64,000 bases of DNA from Archangium violaceum. GTDB lineage: Bacteria > Myxococcota > Myxococcia > Myxococcales > Myxococcaceae. Location of the stretch: assembly GCF_016887565.1 (NCBI RefSeq), contig NZ_CP069396.1, forward strand, positions 11,080,001 through 11,144,000, written 5' to 3'. Position 1 is the first letter of the stretch. Each line of letters starts with the position of its first letter. A model generated the notes under the pieces. It was not told where the DNA came from. It did no database searches and saw only the letters and a program-made list of their open reading frames with translations. Positions 51,538 to 61,604 of the stretch are shown here, in pieces. Position numbers and translations under genes: made by a program.

Positions 51538-52260
51538 TCAACCTGCCGGCCAGGGCTGCAATGGCCGCAGCAACCCGGCCCGGTCCAGCAACTCGTGGAC
51601 GCGAGCGGCCAGCGCGACGTGCTCCGGGTTGAAGGCAGTGAACCGCTCGGGAGTGAGGATGACGAGGGTGCCCTTGTCCTCCACAGGCTCGATGCGCACG
51701 GGGGCAGGCAGAGGGGGCACGGTGCCTCGCAGCCGCGAGAAGTACATCACCCAGCCCACCGAGGTACCTGCAGGTATGACCTGCTCTGAAACGAGGTCGT
51801 CGTATTGATGAGAGGTGACCACTCCCCACTCCGGCTCCCATGCCAGGGCCATGGCACGCAATACCTCGGTCATGACCGGAGCAGTCAGCACCCGTTCCCC
51901 GACAGGACCTTCATCGAAGGGCTTGAGCACGCAGTTGGATGGAAGCAAGGTTTCAACTGAACCGCACGCCGCTCCAGCGGAGGAGGTTTCCTCCTGGCTG
52001 TCGCCCGTCCACAGCCGGAACCTGAAGCCATCATCGCGCTGATGTTCCTCCTGTGCGAACAGTTTCTGGAAGCTCGCGGCGTTTGGAGTGAACTGGCGTT
52101 TGCGCGCCTCCTCGAAGGAGTTTGCCGGCTGGTACCAGCGGTTCCACGCTGGGTCGCAGCGCCCCAGGAGGTGGAAGAAACGCTCCGCGCGGCGTGCACA
52201 AGCCTCAGCGGATTCGGACCGGGCGAGCCAATAGGAGCCCGCGTAATAGGTTTCTATCAT
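51538..52260 (-). CDS. Imm52-family immunity protein (orphan)
   Basis: A 240-residue soluble protein that begins METYYAGSYW-like (MIETYYAGSYWLARSESAEACARRAERFFHLL), the recognised start of Imm52 immunity proteins. LLGRCDPAWNRWYQP and the C-terminal LTPERFTAFNPEHVALAARVHELLD also fit. In myxobacteria such proteins neutralise the C-terminal domain of lipoprotein toxins. The ATG at 52260 overlaps the TGA of the toxin remnant (CAATGATAG), the usual toxin-immunity coupling. The toxin itself is deleted, so this gene now protects only against toxin from related cells. Confidence 0.82.
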   Translation of the reverse strand: MIETYYAGSYWLARSESAEACARRAERFFHLLGRCDPAWNRWYQPANSFEEARKRQFTPNAASFQKLFAQEEHQRDDGFRFRLWTGDSQEETSSAGAACGSVETLLPSNCVLKPFDEGPVGERVLTAPVMTEVLRAMALAWEPEWGVVTSHQYDDLVSEQVIPAGTSVGWVMYFSRLRGTVPPLPAPVRIEPVEDKGTLVILTPERFTAFNPEHVALAARVHELLDRAGLLRPLQPWPAG

Positions 52261-52591: not shown

Positions 52592-52618
52592 AGTGGAAGC
52601 GGCGGGAATCGAACCCGC
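52592..52618 (-). repeat. tRNA 3'-end fragment, candidate attachment site (att1)
   Basis: On the minus strand the sequence reads GCGGGTTCGATTCCCGC, a complete T-arm, then CGCTTCCA as the 3' acceptor strand and discriminator. No matching 5' acceptor or D/anticodon arms are found in the adjacent DNA, so this is not a working tRNA gene. The same block recurs in direct orientation at 54225. Integrative elements commonly leave such fragments. Confidence 0.7.
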
Positions 52619-52690
52619 GCCGGGCGGTGGGAGTCGATATCCCGCCGCGTCCCCTGGTGTCCCGCCCTGTTCCAGCCCGTTCCGCAGGCT

Positions 52691-52718: not shown

Positions 52719-52953
52719 GAGGTGAAGACCGACAATTCAGAGCGCGAGGGCAAGTACGAGACGCGCCGCGGGTCGTTCTCGTCATCTGGGCTGGCGGTTG
52801 AGGTCTGGCAGCATGCCAGCGCCCTCCTACTGTAGGTTCAACGGGTGCGAGGTGGTCGTGCCGAACAGCGCATTGCCGGGTACGCACGAAGTGAGAAGCG
52901 TGGGGCAGCGTTGCTCCTTGACACTCGCGCGCTGTCACGGCCACGCTGCGACG

Positions 52954-53667
52954 ATGACAAATACTCGTCACAGAGGTTCCCTTCGACAAGCGCTGGCTGT
53001 AGTGACTGCGTTCGCGCTCCTGCTCGGCATCGGCAACGAGGCTGAGGCTCAACAAACGGGCAAAACGACCCGATACTGGGATTGTGCCAAACCAAGCGCT
53101 GCGTGGACTGGGAAAGCCTCAGTTACCAGTCCGGTTAAAGCTTGCGCCAAGGATGGCGTCACCGTGCTCGGTCCGGATGTGCAAAGCGGTGCGAATGGTG
53201 GTACTGCCTTCGCGTGCAACAACAATCAGCCGTGGGCTGTGAATTCAATTTTGTCGTATGGGTTTGTCGCGGCGCATGTGCTCGGCGGGTCAGAAGCCAC
53301 TTGGAGCTGCGCCTGTTATGAATTGACATTCACCAGCGGGCCCGTGAATGGCAAGAAGATGGTGGTTCAGGTGGTCAATACGGGAGGGAATTTGGGTGAG
53401 AACCGTTTCGACCTGCTAATTCCTGGCGGGGGTGTTGGCATTTTCAACGCCTGTCAGAGTCAGTGGGGTGCTCCAGCCGATGGTTGGGGTGCCAGATACG
53501 GCGGCGTCAGCACTCGCGCTCAGTGCGACACGCTGCCGACTCAATTGAGGCCGGGCTGTCAGTGGCGATTCGATTGGTTCCTGAACGCGGATAATCCTAG
53601 CGTGAGCTTCAAGCAGGTCACCTGTCCATCCGCAATCACCAATAAAACTGGCTGCATCCGCAAGTAA
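52954..53667 (+). CDS. Glycoside hydrolase family 45 endo-beta-1,4-glucanase, fungal type, secreted
   Basis: A 237-residue protein: a signal peptide of about 32 residues ending EAEA, then a single GH45 catalytic domain without binding module or linker. TTRYWDC holds the catalytic base Asp43 (Asp10 of Humicola Cel45A) and ENRFDLLIPGGG holds the acid Asp153 (Asp121). CACYELTFTSGPVNGKKM, GVGIFNACQSQWG, LRPGCQWRFDWFLNADNPS and KTGCIRK match fungal GH45 closely. Ten of the usual fourteen cysteines remain; Ala45, Ala49, Ala80 and Ser118 replace the partners of two disulphides. It should cut cellulose internally. It is more A/T-rich than its neighbours and lies inside a decayed mobile region, suggesting transfer. 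No clear ribosome site before ATG 52954. Confidence 0.92.
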   Translation: MTNTRHRGSLRQALAVVTAFALLLGIGNEAEAQQTGKTTRYWDCAKPSAAWTGKASVTSPVKACAKDGVTVLGPDVQSGANGGTAFACNNNQPWAVNSILSYGFVAAHVLGGSEATWSCACYELTFTSGPVNGKKMVVQVVNTGGNLGENRFDLLIPGGGVGIFNACQSQWGAPADGWGARYGGVSTRAQCDTLPTQLRPGCQWRFDWFLNADNPSVSFKQVTCPSAITNKTGCIRK

Positions 53668-53699
53668 GAGCAGGCGAACGTATCGTTGACCACCTGCGC

Positions 53700-53736
53700 G
53701 GGCCGGGTTCCTACGGGGACTCGGCCCTTTGCTTTC
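53700..53736 (+). terminator. Rho-independent terminator after the GH45 gene
   Basis: GGGCCGGGTTCC (53700-53711) pairs along its whole length, with two G-U wobbles, with GGGACTCGGCCC (53716-53727) around TACG, followed by TTTGCTTTC. It sits 33 bp after the stop codon, giving the GH45 gene its own transcription end. Confidence 0.8.
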
Positions 53737-53789
53737 TGTGGGAGTGAGCGGGCGAATCAGCTCGGTACGAGCCCGGATTGCGTGTGCAC

Positions 53790-54170
53790 TCTGGGGGCTA
53801 CACCCAGCGGGTCATCCCGCAGGCCCCGCGCGTGAAGCTCTTCGGGAAGGTGCCGAAGGCTGCCTTCGACTTCCTGAACTTCGACGAAGCCGAGCGGCTT
53901 GTCGCCGCCGCTGACCTGGAGTGGCGTCCCGTGCTGCTCGTCGCGCTCAAGGCGGGGCTGCGGCTGGGGGAGCTAATCGGGCTCCAGTGGGACCGACCTG
54001 GACTGGCAGCGGAGCACCCTCCACGTTCGCCGGACTATCTGGCGCGGGGTGGAGGGCTTGCCGAAGGGCGGGCGTGAGCGGGCGGTCGAGCTGCCTGCGT
54101 CCGTGGTGGATGCCCTCAAGGCACACCTGTCGCGGTGCTCGACGCGCCCTTTGCGCCGGCACGCGACATA
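53790..54170 (+). pseudogene. Tyrosine recombinase (phage integrase) fragment with frameshift
   Basis: The first part (FGKVPKAAFDFLNFDEAERLVAAADLEW ... VALKAGLRLGELIGLQW) is the box I region of a tyrosine integrase, with the catalytic Arg in GLRLGEL. The homology then continues in another frame from about 53990 (DLDWQRSTLHVRRTIWRGVEGLPKGGRERAVEL) to TAG at 54168-54170. One or two bases have been lost or gained at GGGACCGACC. The N-terminal domain and the boxes with the catalytic His-x-x-Arg and Tyr are missing or decayed, so it cannot catalyse recombination. It lies 55 bp from the att2 repeat. Confidence 0.8.
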
Positions 54171-54224
54171 GACGCAATACGGCTGGAAGGTGCTGCTAAC
54201 CAGCCGTGATCACGGCCTGAAAAT

Positions 54225-54250
54225 GTGGAGGCGGCGGGAATCGAAGCCGC
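54225..54250 (-). repeat. Second tRNA 3'-end fragment, candidate attachment site (att2)
   Basis: GTGGAGGCGGCGGGAATCG then AAGCCGC on the plus strand; 24 of 26 positions match att1 at 52593-52618, in the same orientation, 1.63 kb away. On the minus strand it is again a T-arm plus acceptor strand, but one T-stem pair is broken (C opposite C). The two copies bracket the GH45 gene and the integrase remnant. Confidence 0.7.
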
Positions 54251-54610
54251 CAAGGCCGGATCCGCCTCCACTCGAGAACAGAGGCACACCCCCCGTTTTC
54301 CCTCTGAAAATGGGGCGCCCATCTGTCCGGGCGAGTCCATGCGCGTCCGTTCGATTTGGTCCTTTTTTGGTCCCCTTGGACCCCTCGCCGGGCTAGAGCG
54401 GCGAGCCTTCCGGGCCCTCCGGCTGTCTTCTGGCGCCAATGCCTTAGCCTACTATTGCCGCGTCCTGGTGGCCTCCACCGGCCCGAGCTTCGGCTGCCGC
54501 GCCCTGTGGCTCTCCCGGATCGCCTTCGTTTCGGTCCTTGGTTCCCTGGAGCCCTGGGCTACGACGAACTGCACAACTTTCAATGCACTAATAGGAGCGC
54601 TGTTACTTCC
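54251..54610. other. Stretch without a supported gene
   Basis: This 360-bp stretch has only weak open frames with poor composition (for example the Pro-rich frame through 54396). A short dyad CCGTGATCACGG lies just before it at 54204-54215. I see no promoter, RNA gene or recognisable relic; it is probably decayed accessory DNA. Confidence 0.4.
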
Positions 54611-55196: not shown

Positions 55197-55547
55197 CTAA
55201 TCAACATCCAATTTCCAAGTGCCCTCGCCCCAATACTTCAGAACGCGAGACGCCAAGAAAGGAACCATGCCTTTCCCCTTGGCCGCTTCCTCGAGGACGG
55301 GCTTTGCCTGCTCGGGTCTATCACTGAGCAAACAGGCCGCCGCGTTGACTCGAACATCCATGCGCGGATGCGCTAACAGTCCCGCGAGCGCATCCCTCCC
55401 AGCCTCGCCCTGGTCGCGTAGCTTCTTGTAGGCAGCTATGTATCGCTTCGCATACTTGTTCCCGCCCTTACGGTCGCCGCGCATGATCGCCTCAGTCTGC
55501 GCCGCTACATTTTGGGCGAAGTCCTCCACGATGCTGCCCAGATCCAT
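55197..55547 (-). CDS. DUF2019 domain protein, putative immunity partner
   Basis: A 116-residue helical protein with HEAT-like repeats: IVEDFAQNVAAQTEAIMRGD, NKYAKRYIAAYKKLRDQGEAGRDAL, LLAHPRMDVRVNAAACLL, VLEEAAKGKGMVPFLASRVLKYW. This is the DUF2019 pattern I know from myxobacterial toxin loci. Its ATG at 55547 overlaps the TAA of the toxin fragment (TAATG), the arrangement expected for an immunity gene. It appears intact although its toxin is not. Confidence 0.75.
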   Translation of the reverse strand: MDLGSIVEDFAQNVAAQTEAIMRGDRKGGNKYAKRYIAAYKKLRDQGEAGRDALAGLLAHPRMDVRVNAAACLLSDRPEQAKPVLEEAAKGKGMVPFLASRVLKYWGEGTWKLDVD

Positions 55548-55879
55548 TACCACCCCCCATTCTTGATGTTCTCAATTGCAAGCAAGGCAAAATCTCGCTG
55601 CGCCTCGTAGGATTGAGTGCTGAGCCATTGCCTCACCGTCAGGCGTGAGGACTTGGTGGCGGTCCACTGGATGGACGAATAGAAGGCGCTCACCTCGTCA
55701 TGCAGCGGCTTGTCTAGAGCAATGACATTCTCGGTGTTGTGTATAGCCTCGCCTCCAAATCGCTTGACGTTCCCTTTGGTCTGCTCAACCAGGTGATGCC
55801 ACTCCTTGCCTTTGCCCGCTGGCCCCATGGCCGACTTGAAGCCACTAAACGACCCCCACGGCGACTGCGGGCCAGGGGA
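55547..55879 (-). pseudogene. C-terminal HNH/LHH-like nuclease module of a toxin, lacking its 5' part
   Basis: Open from 55879 to TAA at 55547-55549. It reads FKSAMGPAGKGKEWHHLVEQ then FGGEAIHNTENVIALDKPLHDEVSAFYSS and a helical end TVRQWLSTQSYEAQRDFALLAIENI. The EWHHLVEQ ... N ... H pattern resembles metal-dependent HNH/LHH/AHH-type nuclease toxins found at the C-termini of polymorphic toxins. An in-frame TAG at 55880-55882 and the lack of any delivery domain show that the N-terminal part is gone. An internal ATG (55828) could still give a 93-residue cytosolic module. The DUF2019 gene follows directly. Confidence 0.7.
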
Positions 55880-56292
55880 CTAATGCGACTCGACCACCCA
55901 TCAATGCCTGTTGGACTTCGGTCCTTGGCCTGAATGCAAAGCCGACTGCCACTGTCGCGGGAGAGATTTGTGATGGCGGCTCCTGCAGGCCTGGTTGCCG
56001 CTCGAACTGCGAGTGCCCGTATCCGAGTGTCTGTTACAGCTCGACCTGGACGTGCGGCCCAGACTTTGGCCCATTCCCCCCTGCACTCCCGGCTGTAACG
56101 GTTGCCCCTGACGCGGGGACGAGCCTCGGCGGCGAGTGTCTATGTCAGGAAGCTCAGCACCTCGCGCGCGCGACGCTCCAGGCTCTCTCGTATCGCGTCG
56201 CACGCCGTGGCGTGTGGCACCACGCACTGGAAGGGAGAAGCCCTCCAGGAAGGCGTGCCGGGGTTGCGTTCAATTGTACTCGGCTGGAGGGT
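55880..56292. other. Unassigned junction between island and FG-GAP operon
   Basis: About 410 bp without a confident gene. A plus-strand frame includes a cysteine-rich stretch, CDGGSCRPGCRSNCECPYP then SVCYSSTWTCGP (55966-56060), that resembles Cys-rich repeats of myxobacterial secreted proteins, but it has no start, signal or nearby stop. On the minus strand, just after the FG-GAP stop, a 55-codon frame ends HATACDAIRESLERRAREVLSFLT. Both look like relics; I cannot choose between them. Confidence 0.35.
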
Positions 56293-59200
56293 CTAGAAGC
56301 CGAGCGGCACCAGGTAGGCCGTGCCGTTCTGCGTGCCCGTGCGGTAGCTGAGCGGCGCGCCGACGACGAGGGTGGGCGGGATGCTTCCGCTCCCCGCCAC
56401 CAGCGCCAGATCGCTCCCGAAGTTGGAGCGCTCCGTCACGTCGCCCGTCAGCGTCAGCAGCGGCGAGACCGGGCCCGTGGTCGTGGGCCCGCCCGCGTAG
56501 ACGAACACCGCGCCGCCGCCGTCCGAGGCCACCGACGCGCCCGGTGCGCTCACCACCAGCTCCGGCGCGCCGTCGCCCGTCAGGTCCACCCCACCGGCCA
56601 GCGCCGTGCCGAAGCCCACCGCGCGCGAGCGGTGCACCAGCACCTTGGGAATCAGCGCGCTGTCCATGGCGCCCACCACCGTCTCACCCGAGGCCGGCCG
56701 GCGGCTCACCAGCTGCGCGATGTCGAACAGCAGCACCGCGGGCTGCGTCACGCCGTCGTACGTCACGTTCGCCGCGCTCACCGCCAGGTAGTCCGCGCCC
56801 GTCTTGCCCAGCACGCGGCCCGCGCGCGTCGTCGCCACGCCCAGGCCGATGAAGTTCATGCCCACTTCCGAGTCCGCCGCCAGCCGCACCGTGGAGGGCA
56901 CCTTGCGCGTGCCACACTTCACCCCGGCCGGGTCGTAACCGAACGCCACCACCACGCCGCCGCGCTGGGCGTTGTCCGTGTAACGCCACGCCACCTCGTC
57001 GCAGCCATCCGCGTTCAGGTCTCCCAGCACCGCCGGCGCCGACGTCTGCTGCACCAGCGAGGGCGGCTGCCCGGGGTTGCCCGGGAGGATGAGCGTGGGC
57101 GCCGTGTAGAGCGGATCGCACCCCATGGTCAGCTTGCCCGGCGAGACGTCGTCCGGAGCGCGGCCCGGCAGGATGTCGATGCCGTTGGTGCGCAGCATCG
57201 CGATGTCCTGCTTGCCATCCCCGTTGAAGTCGAAGCCGCCCAACACCCCGCGCCCCATGCTCCGGCGCGTGCAGTTGCCGGTGTTGCCCACGGCCGTGCA
57301 CCCCTCGATGGTGCCCGGCGCCCACAGCCGGTAGGCGGGCTTGAAGGTTCCATCCGCCTGGCCCAGCGACACCAGCACGCCACCGTACTGCACGCTCGCG
57401 GTGGGGAGGCACTCGGGCCGCTCCAACTGGTACACGGGGGTGATGTCGGTGGCCCGCGTGGAGGTGCCCGGCATGATGAAGCCCGGCGCGCCGATCACCG
57501 CGTCCTGGCGCCCATCGCCGTTGAAGTCCGTGAAGGCCACGTCCGTGCCCACGTTGCGCCCGGGGGCCAGCGACGAGATGCTCCCCTCGCCCGCCAGCGC
57601 GAACTTCCCGTCCTGGCCGAAGGACCAGGCGCGGCCGATGGACAGCTCGGCGCCATCCGCGTTGGCCCCACCCGAGCCGGAGAAGCCCGGCGAGCCCACC
57701 AGCGCCACCGCGGCCGTCGTGCCCCGGGCCACCGCCACCACTTCACCGAAGCGCTCCACGCTCGGCCGCGCCGGCACCATGGAGACCGAGCGCGACCACT
57801 GCGCGAGCGAGTCGCCCGTCTTGAGGAAGGCATCCACCCGCCCGGTGAAGCCCAGCCCGGGCGCGGAGGCGCGGCCCGCGAAGGCCACCAGCCCGGACCG
57901 CCCCTCCGGCAGCGGCCACGTCGCCAGCCCCACGCCGAAGACGTCCGACTTCGCCAGTCCCGGCAGGAAGGAGCTCGACTTGTTGAGCGCGGCACCGCGG
58001 CTCAGCGTGGACAGCGGATAGACGAGCACCTTGCCGCCCAGGCGCAGCGTGGTGCTCCCCGAGCCCGGGCTCGCGTAGGGCGCGCCCAGCAGCAGCTCCG
58101 GACCGGGAGTCCCGTCCACGTCCAGCACCGCCCAGCTCCGCCCCGCGTTGATGCCGGCCGCGTCGCCGTACAGCCGGGCCCAGGCCTCGTCGCGCTTCAC
58201 CTGCGCGGGCGTGGCCGCGGGCTCGCCCATGGGCTTGTACGCGCTCACGTCGAAGAGCAGCGCTCCGCCCGCGTCGTTCATGTTGACCTGGCCACCGCTG
58301 GTCCTCAGGTCCGGCGAGTCCACGCGATCCGCCAGCGCCATCAGCAGCGTGGGCCGCGTCCCCTCGCCCGGCACGACGTCCAGCTTCCAGGTGCCCTCGC
58401 CATTGGTATCATTCGCGACGGTGGGCATCACGTACACGTCCGGCGACTCGCGGAAGCGCGTGCCCGAGGCCCGCGCGAAGTACACGGACACGGCCTGCAC
58501 CATCGCGGAGGTGCCATCCGCGTTGTAGCGCGACGCCCTGCTCAGCGCCGCCACGTCCGGCAGCCCGTCGCCGTTGAGGTCCGCCACCTTCAGCACGCGG
58601 CCCAGCTCCGTGTTGCCACGCGACTCGGTGGTGCCCGTCTTGCTCAGGTCCAGTCCGCCCAGGCGGAGGCTCGGCAGCTCCGGCACCGCCTCGCCCGGGG
58701 TGAGCAGGTAGATGTCCACCACGCCCCGGCGCAGCGTCACCGAGCCGGACAGGTCGCCCGTGGGCGAGCCCACCACCAGGTCCACGTCCCCGTCCACGTC
58801 CACGTCCGCGAGCGCCAGACCCGCGCCGAAGGAGCCACTGCGCCCCAAGCCGGCGAGCGGCGCGCGCAGGGGCTCCGGCCCATTGGCGCCGAAGCGGTAC
58901 AGGTACACCGCGCCCGCGTCGCCCGCGGTGAAGTCCGCGCCCGGCGACGACACCGCCAACTCCGCCCTGCCGTCGTTGTCCAGGTCCCCGGCCACCACCG
59001 TCTCGCCGAAGCGGGCCGTGTCCGTCTCACCCGTCAGGGTCCACGTGGGCTTGTCGGGCAGCACGCCATCCCGGCTGCCCTTGTAGATGAACACCGCGCC
59101 GCCCTGGGGCCTGGCCAGGTCGCTCTCCGCCTGCCCCACCGCCACGTCCGAAATCCCATCCCCGTCGAAGTCCGCCGTCACCACCGAGGCCACGTCCGAG

Positions 59201-60042
59201 AGCCGTCCGTGCGCCTGGGTGTCGCGCTTGAGCTCGTCCAGGATGCGCACGGAGACGCGCGCCTTCTGGCCGGTGAAGGGATCCGCCGCCTCCAGCACCG
59301 CCAGGCCCTTCGCATCGGCCTCGGCCGAGAAGGCGCCATGGGCGATCTTCCCCGGGCCGGACACCTTGGTCCAGACCACCCGGTCACTGCCGCCCACCGT
59401 CCCCAGCGGCGCCGACGAGCCCGCCGGCACCGCCATCAGCGCCGGGTCTCCGCGCAGCTGCGCGTCCGCGCGCACCTCGAACTGGAGGACGGCCTCCTCG
59501 CCCGTGCGGCCATCCCGCACGCGCACCAGGTCCACGCCCTGCGCCGTGCCCGCCTTGTACGTGCCCGTGGACGACAGCGTGCTGCTGCCCGTCGCGTTGC
59601 GCTCCAGCGTGAAGACGGGCGTGCCCAGCTGCCCCGACACCTGCACCTGGAAGGTCGTGCCCGGCTTCACCGTGGCCCGCGCGGGCGCCACGTCGAAGCC
59701 CGTCACCACGTTCACCTGCGCCCGCGCGTCACCCGGGCAGCGGATGTCCTCCACCACCAGCGTGTCCGTCGCGGGCGTGGAGCCGGCGACGAAGCGCGAC
59801 CCGCGCATCTCTCCCGACGAGCCCCCGGACTCCACGCGGAAGCTGTAGTAGCCGCTGCCTCCCGCGGCCGTCAGGGTGACGGGCTCATTCACGTGCACCC
59901 GGTCGGGGCTCGCGGTGAGGGTGAGGGGCGGCAGCCCCGAGCAGGGATTCACCGAGGGAGGCAGCTCGGTCGGCCCCTCCTCCAGGTTGCAGCCCGTGCC
60001 CAGGAGCGCGAAGGCCAGCGACGCGCGGAAGACTCGATTCAT
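56293..60042 (-). CDS. Large FG-GAP/VCBS repeat lipoprotein
   Basis: A 1249-residue outer-surface protein. The signal peptide MNRVFRASLAFALLGTGC ends in lipid Cys18. Ig-like beta modules (about 35-240; TLTASPDRVHVNEPVTLTAAGGSGYY) precede at least nine integrin-like FG-GAP repeats with Ca-binding loops such as DFDGDGISDVAVG, DLDNDGRAELAVS, DVDVDGDVDLVVG, DFNGDGRQDAVIG and DFNGDGKQDIAML, likely forming beta-propellers. Such proteins act in adhesion or surface binding. The ATG at 60042 lies 11 bp after the stop of the previous gene in a minus-strand operon. It is the last gene of that operon. Confidence 0.9.
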   Translation of the reverse strand: MNRVFRASLAFALLGTGCNLEEGPTELPPSVNPCSGLPPLTLTASPDRVHVNEPVTLTAAGGSGYYSFRVESGGSSGEMRGSRFVAGSTPATDTLVVEDIRCPGDARAQVNVVTGFDVAPARATVKPGTTFQVQVSGQLGTPVFTLERNATGSSTLSSTGTYKAGTAQGVDLVRVRDGRTGEEAVLQFEVRADAQLRGDPALMAVPAGSSAPLGTVGGSDRVVWTKVSGPGKIAHGAFSAEADAKGLAVLEAADPFTGQKARVSVRILDELKRDTQAHGRLSDVASVVTADFDGDGISDVAVGQAESDLARPQGGAVFIYKGSRDGVLPDKPTWTLTGETDTARFGETVVAGDLDNDGRAELAVSSPGADFTAGDAGAVYLYRFGANGPEPLRAPLAGLGRSGSFGAGLALADVDVDGDVDLVVGSPTGDLSGSVTLRRGVVDIYLLTPGEAVPELPSLRLGGLDLSKTGTTESRGNTELGRVLKVADLNGDGLPDVAALSRASRYNADGTSAMVQAVSVYFARASGTRFRESPDVYVMPTVANDTNGEGTWKLDVVPGEGTRPTLLMALADRVDSPDLRTSGGQVNMNDAGGALLFDVSAYKPMGEPAATPAQVKRDEAWARLYGDAAGINAGRSWAVLDVDGTPGPELLLGAPYASPGSGSTTLRLGGKVLVYPLSTLSRGAALNKSSSFLPGLAKSDVFGVGLATWPLPEGRSGLVAFAGRASAPGLGFTGRVDAFLKTGDSLAQWSRSVSMVPARPSVERFGEVVAVARGTTAAVALVGSPGFSGSGGANADGAELSIGRAWSFGQDGKFALAGEGSISSLAPGRNVGTDVAFTDFNGDGRQDAVIGAPGFIMPGTSTRATDITPVYQLERPECLPTASVQYGGVLVSLGQADGTFKPAYRLWAPGTIEGCTAVGNTGNCTRRSMGRGVLGGFDFNGDGKQDIAMLRTNGIDILPGRAPDDVSPGKLTMGCDPLYTAPTLILPGNPGQPPSLVQQTSAPAVLGDLNADGCDEVAWRYTDNAQRGGVVVAFGYDPAGVKCGTRKVPSTVRLAADSEVGMNFIGLGVATTRAGRVLGKTGADYLAVSAANVTYDGVTQPAVLLFDIAQLVSRRPASGETVVGAMDSALIPKVLVHRSRAVGFGTALAGGVDLTGDGAPELVVSAPGASVASDGGGAVFVYAGGPTTTGPVSPLLTLTGDVTERSNFGSDLALVAGSGSIPPTLVVGAPLSYRTGTQNGTAYLVPLGF

Positions 60043-60053
60043 GGGGGAATGCC

Positions 60054-61604
60054 TCAAGGATTGGCGCCAGCAGTCGCCCAGCGCTGGATGACGGAGATGA
60101 GCTGTGGATCCAACGGACCGTCAGCGGGCATGCGCTGATCCCTCACCGCCGCGATGATGAGCGGCAGGTTGTCCTTCCACTGCTGATACGTGGACAGCTG
60201 CCGGCCCGGTCCCGAGTCGTGGCACTTCGCGCACCGCGCCACGTGGATGGGGCGGATGTCCTTGTTCCAGCCGAGCACCGACGAGGAGACGGGCTGGTAC
60301 GAGAAGGAGACGGCGCGCCGGGCCTCGGTGCCGTCCGCGTAGCGCGCCACGGCGCTCAGCGTGTGCACGCCCGGTCCCAGTCCATCGAAGGAGTAGGCCT
60401 TGGGTGTCCCGTCCGCCTCCACCCCGCCGAGGCTGAAGGCCGGTCCGCTCACCGGCACGTCCACGCCCGCCACCTGGAAGGTGACGCTCTCCGGCGCATT
60501 GCCCGGCGCCACGCGCGCGCGCACCACCAGCGAGTCCTCCACCACCCGCATGCCCTCGTGCAGGCCCAGCACGCGCGGCACCGGGCCGCGGCTGAGCGCC
60601 ACCGTCTCGGTGCCCAGCTGCGCCCAGACACAGCCGCTCTCGTCCGCCGTCAGCAGGCGCAGGCTGCCCGTGTCCACGCCCGAGGCCTGGCCCCACGCGT
60701 CCTTGTCCGCGTCGTACAGGAAGAGCCCGTCACCCGTCTTCACCCAGAGGAAGCGCCCCGCGGCCACCACCTGCTCTGGCGTCTCCTCCAGCGCCACCTC
60801 GCGCCACCCGTCCGCCGCGTTGCGCAGCAGCCGCTCCGACGTCAGCAGCCACGCCTCCCCCGCCCCCTTCTCCGACTCCCCCAGCCCCGCCAGTCCCACC
60901 AGGGTCTCGCCCTTGTGCAGCGACACCTGGGCCTGGCGCACCTGCCACGCCCCCGCCGCCGTCTGGATGGCGTTCCACAGCTTGTCCTCGCGGATGAACC
61001 ACAGCGCCGGCGACACGCGCTCGGCCGGTGCCACCACCAGCGAGCTGATGCCCACCAGCGGCTGGCCATCCACCTTGAGCTGGGACAGCGCCCCGTCACG
61101 CAGCTGGAAGAGGCCCGAGGCATGCGCCAGCCACGCCGCGCCGTCCGGCGTCACCACCGACGCGCTCAGCCCCAGGCTCAGCGCATCCCTCCAGGGCGGG
61201 GCGATGATCCACCCCGACTGCGCCATGAAGAGACCGTTGTCCGCCTCCACCAGCGCGGAGCCCGGCCCCATCCGGAAGACGGCGCGGCCGCGTCCCGGCG
61301 TGATCGGATTGCCCGGGTGGTTCTCCAAGGGAGCCTTCGTCCCGTCCAGCCGCAGGCGGACGAGCTCGCCGGCCGCCGTCACGAAGATGCCGCCGCCCGT
61401 CTGGTCCGCGAAACCCGGCGAGGGCGCCACCTCCGCCTGGGCCGTCACCCGCGCCGGCTGGAAGGCCTCCGGCTTGGGGGTGTCCTGGGGGAGCGAGGGC
61501 TCGCAGGCCGCCAGCAGGCCCGCGAGCAGGAAGGGGTAGACCCTCACCCCAACCCTCTCCCAGGGGGAGAGGGAGCCGATACGGTACGAAGCTCGAGTGT
61601 TCAT
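60054..61604 (-). CDS. CxxCH lipoprotein with propeller-like N-terminal part
   Basis: Up to 516 residues. The lipobox LAAC is preceded by an unusual N-terminus: MNTRASYRIG then SLSPWERVGVRV, the latter encoded by a REP element, then VYPFLLAGLLAAC. Residues about 60-340 carry W/G-rich repeats (GGGIFVTAAGELVRL, GLFQLRDGALSQL, DGLFLYDADKDAWGQ) suggesting a beta-propeller. An Ig-like segment follows, and the last 75 residues form a cytochrome-like tail with CAKCH and MPADGPLD. ATG 61604 overlaps the DUF1501 stop (TAATG), which supports coupling; GTG 61547 inside the REP is an alternative that gives a standard signal peptide. Confidence 0.8.
   Translation of the reverse strand: MNTRASYRIGSLSPWERVGVRVYPFLLAGLLAACEPSLPQDTPKPEAFQPARVTAQAEVAPSPGFADQTGGGIFVTAAGELVRLRLDGTKAPLENHPGNPITPGRGRAVFRMGPGSALVEADNGLFMAQSGWIIAPPWRDALSLGLSASVVTPDGAAWLAHASGLFQLRDGALSQLKVDGQPLVGISSLVVAPAERVSPALWFIREDKLWNAIQTAAGAWQVRQAQVSLHKGETLVGLAGLGESEKGAGEAWLLTSERLLRNAADGWREVALEETPEQVVAAGRFLWVKTGDGLFLYDADKDAWGQASGVDTGSLRLLTADESGCVWAQLGTETVALSRGPVPRVLGLHEGMRVVEDSLVVRARVAPGNAPESVTFQVAGVDVPVSGPAFSLGGVEADGTPKAYSFDGLGPGVHTLSAVARYADGTEARRAVSFSYQPVSSSVLGWNKDIRPIHVARCAKCHDSGPGRQLSTYQQWKDNLPLIIAAVRDQRMPADGPLDPQLISVIQRWATAGANP
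61537..61575. repeat. REP element inside the 5' coding end of the CxxCH lipoprotein gene
   Basis: ACCCTCACCCCAACCCTCTCCC followed by GGGGGAGAGGG (written on the plus strand in two parts) is the same REP core as at 28845 and 50511. It falls between the coupled ATG at 61604 and the hydrophobic core of the signal peptide, in frame. Read on the minus strand it supplies GGGAGAGG and a GTG codon at 61545-61547, a potential internal translation start. Confidence 0.8.

What the first reader, a model, noticed from the sequence alone, without database searches (positions are those of the whole stretch)
52954..53667. Fungal-type GH45 endoglucanase in a myxobacterium, missing exactly two disulphides
GH45 is mainly a eukaryotic family. 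Both catalytic Asp residues are kept, but the cysteines equivalent to Cel45A 12, 16, 47 and 86 are Ala, Ala, Ala and Ser. From the disulphide map I recall (12-47 and 16-86 are pairs), both partners of two bridges are lost together while five bridges stay complete. That coherent loss points to adaptation after transfer and not to random decay.
Basis: partly seen in the sequence, partly recalled or inferred. Interest (0 to 1): 0.75.

Follow-up and report, generated by a model that had tools for sequence, protein, structure and literature searches.

The report
Travelling myxobacterial cellulase missing two disulphides
A soil myxobacterium carries a cellulase-type gene related to fungal and springtail enzymes that lacks two of the usual seven disulphide bridges; its closest relatives in other myxobacteria share this loss, and the gene appears to have moved between genera as a small single-gene unit.

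Summary
52954-53667(+) encodes a 237-aa GH45 protein (PF02015, 255 bits) keeping Asp10 and Asp121 (Cel45A numbering); Cys12, 16, 47 and 86 are Ala, Ala, Ala and Ser; ten Cys remain.

The loss is a clade trait: seven of seven clade-A genes in three genera lack all four Cys. In sister clade B, seven of seven copies that can be scored keep 12+47 and lack 16+86. This looks like stepwise, pairwise loss, but the root is not fixed. Pair loss shows a maintained fold, not adaptation.

New: clade A is a roughly 0.84-1.03 kb shared unit in otherwise different surroundings in seven genomes, with synonymous distances that ignore species kinship, omega 0.68 (clade B 0.2) and a positive-selection signal that clade B lacks. 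Four of 17 GH45 loci lie within 1.1 kb of a tmRNA 3'-end fragment (0.05 expected). All 15 copies compared share a three-residue insert with a springtail enzyme that four fungal enzymes lack. Activity, donor and transfer mechanism are untested.

The parts
52954..53667 (+). GH45 gene, 237 aa
52954..53049 (+). probable Sec signal peptide (residues 1-32, ending AEA before QQ)
   Evidence: by inspection; no predictor was run
53080..53082 (+). Asp43 = catalytic base Asp10 of Cel45A, kept
53086..53088 (+). Ala45 at Cys12 of Cel45A
53098..53100 (+). Ala49 at Cys16 of Cel45A
53191..53193 (+). Ala80 at Cys47 of Cel45A
53305..53307 (+). Ser118 at Cys86 of Cel45A
53389..53391 (+). Asn146 at Asp114 of Cel45A (third active-site aspartate, changed)
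53410..53412 (+). Asp153 = catalytic acid Asp121 of Cel45A, kept
52867..52953 (+). upstream block of 87 bases shared by all seven clade-A genes; holds TTGACA at 52918, conserved in 7 of 7, but no -10 consensus was found
53700..53727 (+). intrinsic-terminator-like hairpin, 12 pairs, then TTTGCTTTCT
52779..53798 (+). unit shared with Archangium lansinium (G062), 92.5% identical over 1020 aligned bases; no other shared stretch of 150 bases or more in the two 20-kb regions
52593..52627 (-). fragment like the tmRNA 3' end (repeat copy 1); found by pattern, no RF00023 match
   Evidence: one search shows only weak matches of other tmRNA models here
54225..54259 (-). fragment like the tmRNA 3' end (repeat copy 2); RF00023 at 54223-54269, 19.2 bits, E 1.1e-4, below the gathering score of 47
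53778..54077 (+). remnant of a tyrosine integrase (PF00589 18.2 bits, E 0.0022, below the cut-off of 27.1)

Best explanation
A secreted GH45 subfamily-A-type endoglucanase-like protein with five instead of seven disulphides, encoded by a small unit that has been passed among Archangium, Corallococcus and Myxococcus. Shown here: the Cys pattern in all seven clade-A genes; the intermediate pattern in the sister clade; a shared unit in otherwise different surroundings; synonymous distances that do not follow recA; open ORFs; strong constraint on about half of the codons and a positive-selection signal on a minority; nearness of some loci to tmRNA 3'-end fragments. Inferred: (1) bridge 16-86 was lost first, in an ancestor of clades A and B, and 12-47 later, in the ancestor of clade A before it spread; (2) both partners go together because a lone thiol in a secreted protein is harmful; (3) the two lost bridges are such that both Cys-Cys dipeptides (11-12 and 86-87) disappear, so the remaining ten Cys hold no neighbouring pair and may fold more simply in a bacterial periplasm; (4) the unit travels on or beside integrative elements that use the tmRNA gene; (5) the window copy still cleaves a beta-1,4-glucan by Asp10 and Asp121, perhaps weakly because Asp114 is Asn.
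For: Clade A 7 of 7 lack Cys12/16/47/86; clade B 7 of 7 with an N-terminus keep 12+47 and lack 16+86; the springtail chain and four fungal chains have all 14. Codons fit steps through Gly or Ser: at 12, GCC in five and GGC in two clade-A genes against TGC in B; at 16, GCT in A and GGT or GGC in B; at 86, AGC or AGT in 7 of 7 A and 4 of 7 B. Clade A is supported 98/98, B 89/92. In all 21 pairs of clade-A loci the unit is 83.0-92.7% identical over 840-1027 bases, starting 87-245 bases before the ATG and ending 751-844 after it; neighbouring genes differ. GC3 of the gene is 0.59-0.65 in all seven. dS 0.09-0.375 does not track recA: rank correlation -0.30, permutation p 0.87; it is below recA in 14 of 16 between-genus pairs and above it in 3 of 5 within-genus pairs. 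Omega 0.676 in A, 0.196 in B; M2a over M1a 2dlnL 32.1 in A, 46.8 on a star tree, 29.2 and 9.6 on halves with their own trees, 0.0 in B. tmRNA 3'-end copies lie within 1.1 kb of the gene at 4 of 17 GH45 loci, expected 0.051, Poisson P 2.8e-7.
Against: A+B as one group without the springtail has only 76/70 support, and springtail with A or with B is not rejected (AU p 0.119, 0.327), so one shared loss of 16-86 is not proven; with no sure root, stepwise gain is not excluded. Four of seven clade-A loci (G062, G123, G132, G138) have no tmRNA fragment within 1.1 kb; the fragments lie on different sides and in different orientations; the 1.1 kb limit was set after seeing the positions. Some other shared stretches exist between clade-A regions: 152 bases (79%) between the window's right tmRNA fragment and a place 5.4 kb downstream in G138, 171 bases (72%) of Imm52 in G123, a glutathione peroxidase gene near both G123 and G138 copies at different distances, and repeats. 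Clade-B copies outside three Myxococcus genomes also share only the gene region, so mobility is not special to clade A. The two halves of the clade-A alignment give different trees, so recombination may inflate the positive-selection test. Asp121 is lost in 2 of 7 clade-A genes. No activity data. The AlphaFold model was poor (mean pLDDT 45.9) and was not used.
Confidence: 0.65

Rival explanations
1. Adaptation after transfer: loss of the two bridges was itself selected in the bacterial host, for example for easier oxidative folding.
For: Two bridges are absent as whole pairs (stepwise chance 0.007); their loss removes both Cys-Cys dipeptides; a positive-selection signal exists in clade A.
Against: The nine sites with posterior above 0.7 (window residues 47, 98, 108, 110, 189, 192, 193, 203, 226) do not include the four cysteine positions 45, 49, 80 and 118, though 47 lies between two of them. 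4 of the 21 possible pairs of bridges would remove both dipeptides (own arithmetic). Pair loss is expected under purifying selection alone.
Confidence: 0.22
2. Relaxed constraint: the gene is losing function and the bridges went with it.
For: Omega 0.68; Asp121 lost in 2 of 7 and Asp114 changed in 3 of 7 clade-A genes; broken or partial GH45 copies exist in G061, G062, G082 and G092.
Against: 7 of 7 clade-A ORFs are open where about 11 stops would be expected; the ten remaining Cys are invariant in clade A; about half of the codons have omega near 0; omega = 1 is rejected (p 0.0043).
Confidence: 0.18
3. Stepwise gain: the ancestor had five bridges (clade A state), clade B gained 12-47, and eukaryotic enzymes gained 16-86.
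For: The unrooted order A(5)-B(6)-eukaryote(7) allows it; the root was not inferred here.
Against: Bacterial GH45 is rare and patchy (15 of 195 genomes of the phylum, one family; 31 of 16,401 bacterial species); clade A is compositionally foreign and its synonymous distances are low.
Confidence: 0.12
4. Donor was an animal (springtail-like) or a relative shared with springtails, not an ascomycete.
For: All 15 myxobacterial copies compared share the insert in the APxxGWG region with springtail chain 5h4u; the four fungal chains lack it. A+B+springtail is separated from the fungal chains at 100/100. A published tree found one bacterial GH45 inside the springtail clade (section 6 of PMC6509783).
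Against: Identity is about equal to both (window protein: 58% springtail, 57-60% fungal chains); only five eukaryotic sequences were available; the springtail branch is long; the published springtail clade has bootstrap 14.
Confidence: 0.35

Closest known systems
Humicola insolens Cel45A and other fungal GH45 subfamily A endoglucanases (organisms of the chains recalled)
   Same: Same family, 57-60% identity over the catalytic domain, Tyr8, Asp10 and Asp121 kept, ten of fourteen Cys
   Different: Five instead of seven bridges, Asp114 is Asn, three-residue insert
Springtail GH45, chain 5h4u (Cryptopygus antarcticus, recalled)
   Same: Best PDB match by score, 58% identity, same insert
   Different: All 14 Cys and Asp114 kept
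Beetle GH45 enzymes (PMC6509783, one section and passages; PMC3003705, passages)
   Same: Horizontally acquired GH45 with changes at Asp114 and Asp121; D121E occurs in rice-weevil xyloglucanases SOR3-5 and in four clade-B copies; a six-bridge beetle model is described
   Different: Beetle genes diversified by duplication within beetles; their bridge pattern was not compared here
Genomic islands at the tmRNA gene (Islander, PMC4383910, passages)
   Same: tmRNA 3'-end fragments and an integrase remnant beside the gene
   Different: No intact tmRNA gene adjacent, integrase decayed, span 1.6 kb, below that method's 2 kb limit

Membership tests
GH45 (PF02015) | profile match above the curated cut-off | tested here: met
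   255.4 bits against 27
GH45 (PF02015) | catalytic base Asp10 and acid Asp121 | tested here: met
GH45 subfamily A | sequence closest to subfamily A structures | tested here: met
   the 10 distinct chains matched at E 0.01 include Cel45A of H. insolens; that the others are subfamily A is recalled, in keeping with passages of PMC10909974
GH45 subfamily A | seven-bridge Cys pattern | tested here: not met
   10 of 14 Cys, five bridges; bridge number varies within GH45 as a whole
GH45 subfamily A | assisting residue Asp114 | tested here: not met
   Asn in the window gene; changed Asp114 went with lost activity in some but not all beetle enzymes
[quoted passage not shown]
   none
tmRNA-gene genomic island | tmRNA fragment bracketing the insert | tested here: met
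   copies at 52593 and 54225
tmRNA-gene genomic island | intact tmRNA gene at one end | tested here: not met
   ARAGORN finds none in the window; the only match over the tmRNA gathering score lies at genome 3316857-3317219
tmRNA-gene genomic island | integrase gene inside | tested here: inconclusive
   short remnant below cut-off
integron gene cassette | attC site and integron integrase | not tested
   no attC model was run

The most novel reading that the evidence does not exclude
Clade-A GH45 is a travelling single-gene cassette of myxobacteria under diversifying selection, moved by a tmRNA-3'-end-targeting recombination system that has scattered dozens of tmRNA-end copies, some of them (by eye) just behind single genes, through Archangium genomes; its disulphides were trimmed one whole bridge at a time on the way from a eukaryote to this mobile form.
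Probability: 0.15. Interest if true: 0.8.

Novelty: new variant of a known kind. Interest (0 to 1): 0.5.

Why it matters
It gives a natural series of 7, 6 and 5 bridges in one small enzyme fold, ready for testing which disulphides a secreted cellulase can shed and in what order. It also suggests a eukaryote-type enzyme spreading between bacterial genera as a single-gene unit with fast protein change. In the listings and passages that I saw from the literature searches nothing mentions this Cys pattern, the unit or its spread; most listed papers were not opened. GH45 in myxobacteria as such is in print (PMC12093494, one passage).

Tried and rejected
AlphaFold on the 13-sequence alignment gave mean pLDDT 45.9, so no fold search was made and bridge geometry was not tested. 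Searches for relatives in viral contigs, plasmids and phages found none at their sensitivity. The scan of 84,980 genomes found five relatives, all myxobacterial, but it finds close relatives only. Wider bacterial GH45 (for example the Legionella clade of PMC13084967) could not be reached, so whether bacteria at large share the trait is untested. Empty-site comparison for G123 and G084: the relatives looked at match one flank only, so exact insertion points were not obtained; in G084 the unit's 3' end abuts a dispersed repeat (query 2229-2400), which I read as an IS end cutting the unit, not as its carrier. A sigma-70 promoter was sought and not found. A vertical-descent reading of clade A was set aside on flanks and dS; the dS comparison rests on one gene, the better-scoring of two RecA genes per genome. 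Literature on joint loss of disulphide partners was searched and no paper was opened.

Rows dropped: B_G082 (N-terminus missing; Phe aligned at 47, where homology is doubtful, and Thr at 86) from the tree and the codon tests; fragments in G061 and G092 from all but the locus counts and flank scans. G062's second copy (in-frame TAA, reported at index 42 of the matched stretch) was in the tree and the 0.196 estimate, and left out of the 0.184 estimate and the clade-B site test. B_G131 has no signal peptide in frame and was kept. At column 114 the two Archangium clade-B copies G062 and G063 align differently, and I make no claim there.

Full report
Observation. The ORF at 52954-53667(+) encodes 237 aa and is a GH45 protein: PF02015, 255.4 bits against a cut-off of 27. 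Aligned with the H. insolens Cel45A chain (2eng; organisms of PDB chains are recalled), it has Ala, Ala, Ala and Ser at Cys12, 16, 47 and 86, keeps the other ten Cys and has no extra Cys; Tyr8, Asp10 and Asp121 are kept and Asp114 is Asn. The pairing 16-86 follows from the bridge list of a TtCel45A homology model (PMC10573353, passages), and 12-47 by elimination from the same list, in agreement with recall. Two whole bridges are gone and five can form. By chance, four lost Cys of fourteen would make two whole pairs with probability 0.021.

Distribution. PF02015 occurs in 15 of the 195 genomes held for the phylum, all in one family, in 4 of 90 genera; two of the 15 hold fragments only and one a truncated copy. 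The window's genome has the same genus code as Archangium lansinium and a second copy outside the window at 7239289-7239915. Searches of plasmids, phages and viral contigs found no relative; the scan of 84,980 genomes, which sees close relatives only, found five loci, all in myxobacteria. In print, 31 of 16,401 bacterial species had GH45, and a Legionella clade falls among oribatid mite enzymes (PMC13084967, passages and section 17). A survey of myxobacterial carbohydrate enzymes names GH45 once (PMC12093494, passage).

Two clades. Clade A (seven genomes: two Archangium, two Corallococcus, three Myxococcus by the named loci and genus codes) lacks all four Cys in 7 of 7. Clade B has seven copies with an N-terminus, one of them interrupted by a stop codon and one without a signal peptide in frame; 7 of 7 keep Cys12 and 47 and lack 16 and 86. 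The truncated G082 copy cannot be scored at 12 and 16. The springtail chain and four fungal chains have all fourteen. Clade A has support 98/98 and B 89/92; A and B together without the springtail have only 76/70, and the alternatives are not rejected (AU 0.119 and 0.327). The simplest reading is that 16-86 went first and 12-47 second. The codons agree: GGT or GGC in B and GCT in A at 16; GCC (five) and GGC (two) at 12 in A; AGC or AGT at 86 in 7 of 7 A and 4 of 7 B copies. The root is not fixed, so gain cannot be shut out.

What pair loss means. An unpaired thiol in a secreted protein is usually harmful (established knowledge), so loss in pairs is what purifying selection would leave; it tells that the fold matters, not that the loss was an adaptation. 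One point may still be worth testing: the two lost bridges include one partner of each Cys-Cys dipeptide (11-12 and 86-87), so the remaining Cys have no neighbour that could mispair. By arithmetic 4 of the 21 possible pairs of bridges would do this, so it is only a hint.

Active site. In clade A, Asp121 is Ala in G132 and Ser in G123, and Asp114 is Asn, Pro or Ala in three of seven. In clade B, Asp121 is Ala in the window genome's second copy and Glu in four Myxococcus copies. Busch et al. suggest that D121E contributed to xyloglucanase activity in rice-weevil enzymes and that changes at Asp114 go with lost activity in several but not all beetle enzymes (PMC6509783, passages). So the window copy has both catalytic Asp but not a standard active site, and some siblings may no longer be hydrolases.

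A travelling unit. In regions of 14-20 kb, the seven clade-A loci share a unit around the gene in all 21 pairs: 83.0-92.7% identity over 840-1027 bases, from 87-245 bases before the ATG to 751-844 after it. The neighbours differ: Imm52 and an integrase remnant here, penicillin amidase in G062, TrAA12-like and NAD-binding proteins in G081, hexapeptide and kinase genes in G084, DUF5953 in G138, SIR2_2 in G132, glutathione peroxidase and GCV_T in G123. There are other shared stretches: 152 bases at the window's right tmRNA fragment match a place 5.4 kb downstream of the gene in G138, 171 bases of Imm52 recur beside the unit in G123, the glutathione peroxidase gene lies 0.2 kb from the G123 copy and 6.5 kb from the G138 copy, G062 and G123 share a repeat of about 370 bases, and G081 and G132 share diverged repetitive genes kilobases from the unit. 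The unit has a conserved upstream block with TTGACA but no -10 match, and a terminator-like hairpin at 53700-53727, cut short in G084. GC3 is 0.59-0.65 in all seven clade-A genes. Clade B is mixed: 0.79-0.87 in G119, G128 and G131, which are alike over much of their surroundings, 0.74 in G120, and 0.54-0.62 in the three Archangium copies. Outside those three Myxococcus genomes, clade-B copies also share only the gene region, 456-843 bases, so movement is not peculiar to clade A.

Rates. Pairwise dS in clade A is 0.09-0.375 and does not follow recA: rank correlation -0.30, permutation p 0.87; it is below recA in 14 of 16 between-genus pairs and above it in 3 of 5 within-genus pairs. One-ratio omega is 0.676 in A and 0.196 in B, or 0.184 without the interrupted copy. 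In A, omega = 1 is rejected (p 0.0043) and M2a beats M1a by 2dlnL 32.1; the gain persists on a star tree (46.8) and on halves with their own trees (29.2, 9.6), and is 0.0 in B. The halves have different trees, so recombination may play a part. The seven ORFs are open, although about 11 stops would be expected from roughly 299 substitutions without selection (a rough count).

tmRNA fragments. The window gene lies between two direct copies, 1.63 kb apart, of a sequence like the tmRNA 3' end. The genome has one full tmRNA gene but 36 copies of the 22-base end with up to two mismatches; the reversed-pattern control gives 0. The 14 other genomes examined have 2 to 37 copies. Copies lie within 1.1 kb of GH45 in G000 (two), G084, G081 and G063: 4 of 17 loci against 0.051 expected. 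The limit of 1.1 kb was chosen after seeing the positions. Tyrosine integrases commonly use the tmRNA gene, and the Mx8 integrase extends across its attachment site (PMC4383910, passages). I take this as the likeliest route of transfer, but orientation and side vary, four of seven clade-A loci lack a near copy, and empty-site comparison did not give exact ends.

Origin. All 15 myxobacterial copies compared share a three-residue insert (APxxGWG region) with the springtail chain 5h4u; the four fungal chains lack it. A+B+springtail is separated from the fungal chains at 100/100. A published tree has one bacterial sequence inside the springtail clade, with weak support; the section and passages that I read do not name it (PMC6509783). 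A donor near springtails, or one shared with them, is possible; five eukaryotic sequences cannot decide.

Verdict. The reading as adaptation after transfer goes beyond the evidence; the loss is a clade trait, probably stepwise. The more unusual point is the mobile single-gene behaviour and fast protein change of clade A.

Noticed in passing
own genome (G000), 36 places; window 52593 and 54225; L073-L092: The 3' end of tmRNA is a dispersed repeat (36 copies, control 0; 23 to 37 in the three other genomes of the genus examined). By eye, several copies form a hairpin just behind the stop of a gene, and others lead into an integrase-tail-like sequence; this was not counted systematically.
   Followed up: partly
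L007 (genome 7239289-7239915), outside the window: Second GH45 copy in the same genome, clade B, with Cys12 and 47 but Ala at the catalytic acid Asp121.
   Followed up: yes
51538-52260 (-); L041, downstream of the unit: Imm52 immunity gene beside the GH45 unit; DNA matching its 3' part (72% over 171 bases) lies beside the clade-A unit in G123 too.
   Followed up: partly
55197-55828 (-): Short ORFs with a DUF2019 match and a weak HNH match, possibly toxin-immunity debris.
   Followed up: no
56293-60057 (-) and 56212-60138 (+): A 1254-aa FG-GAP repeat protein with a 1308-aa open frame on the other strand, probably a GC-rich shadow ORF.
   Followed up: no
L038, query 2229-2400; L041, query 905-1267: Dispersed repeats of about 172 and 360 bases lie at or near the 3' side of the clade-A unit in Corallococcus G084 and Myxococcus G123.
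   Followed up: partly
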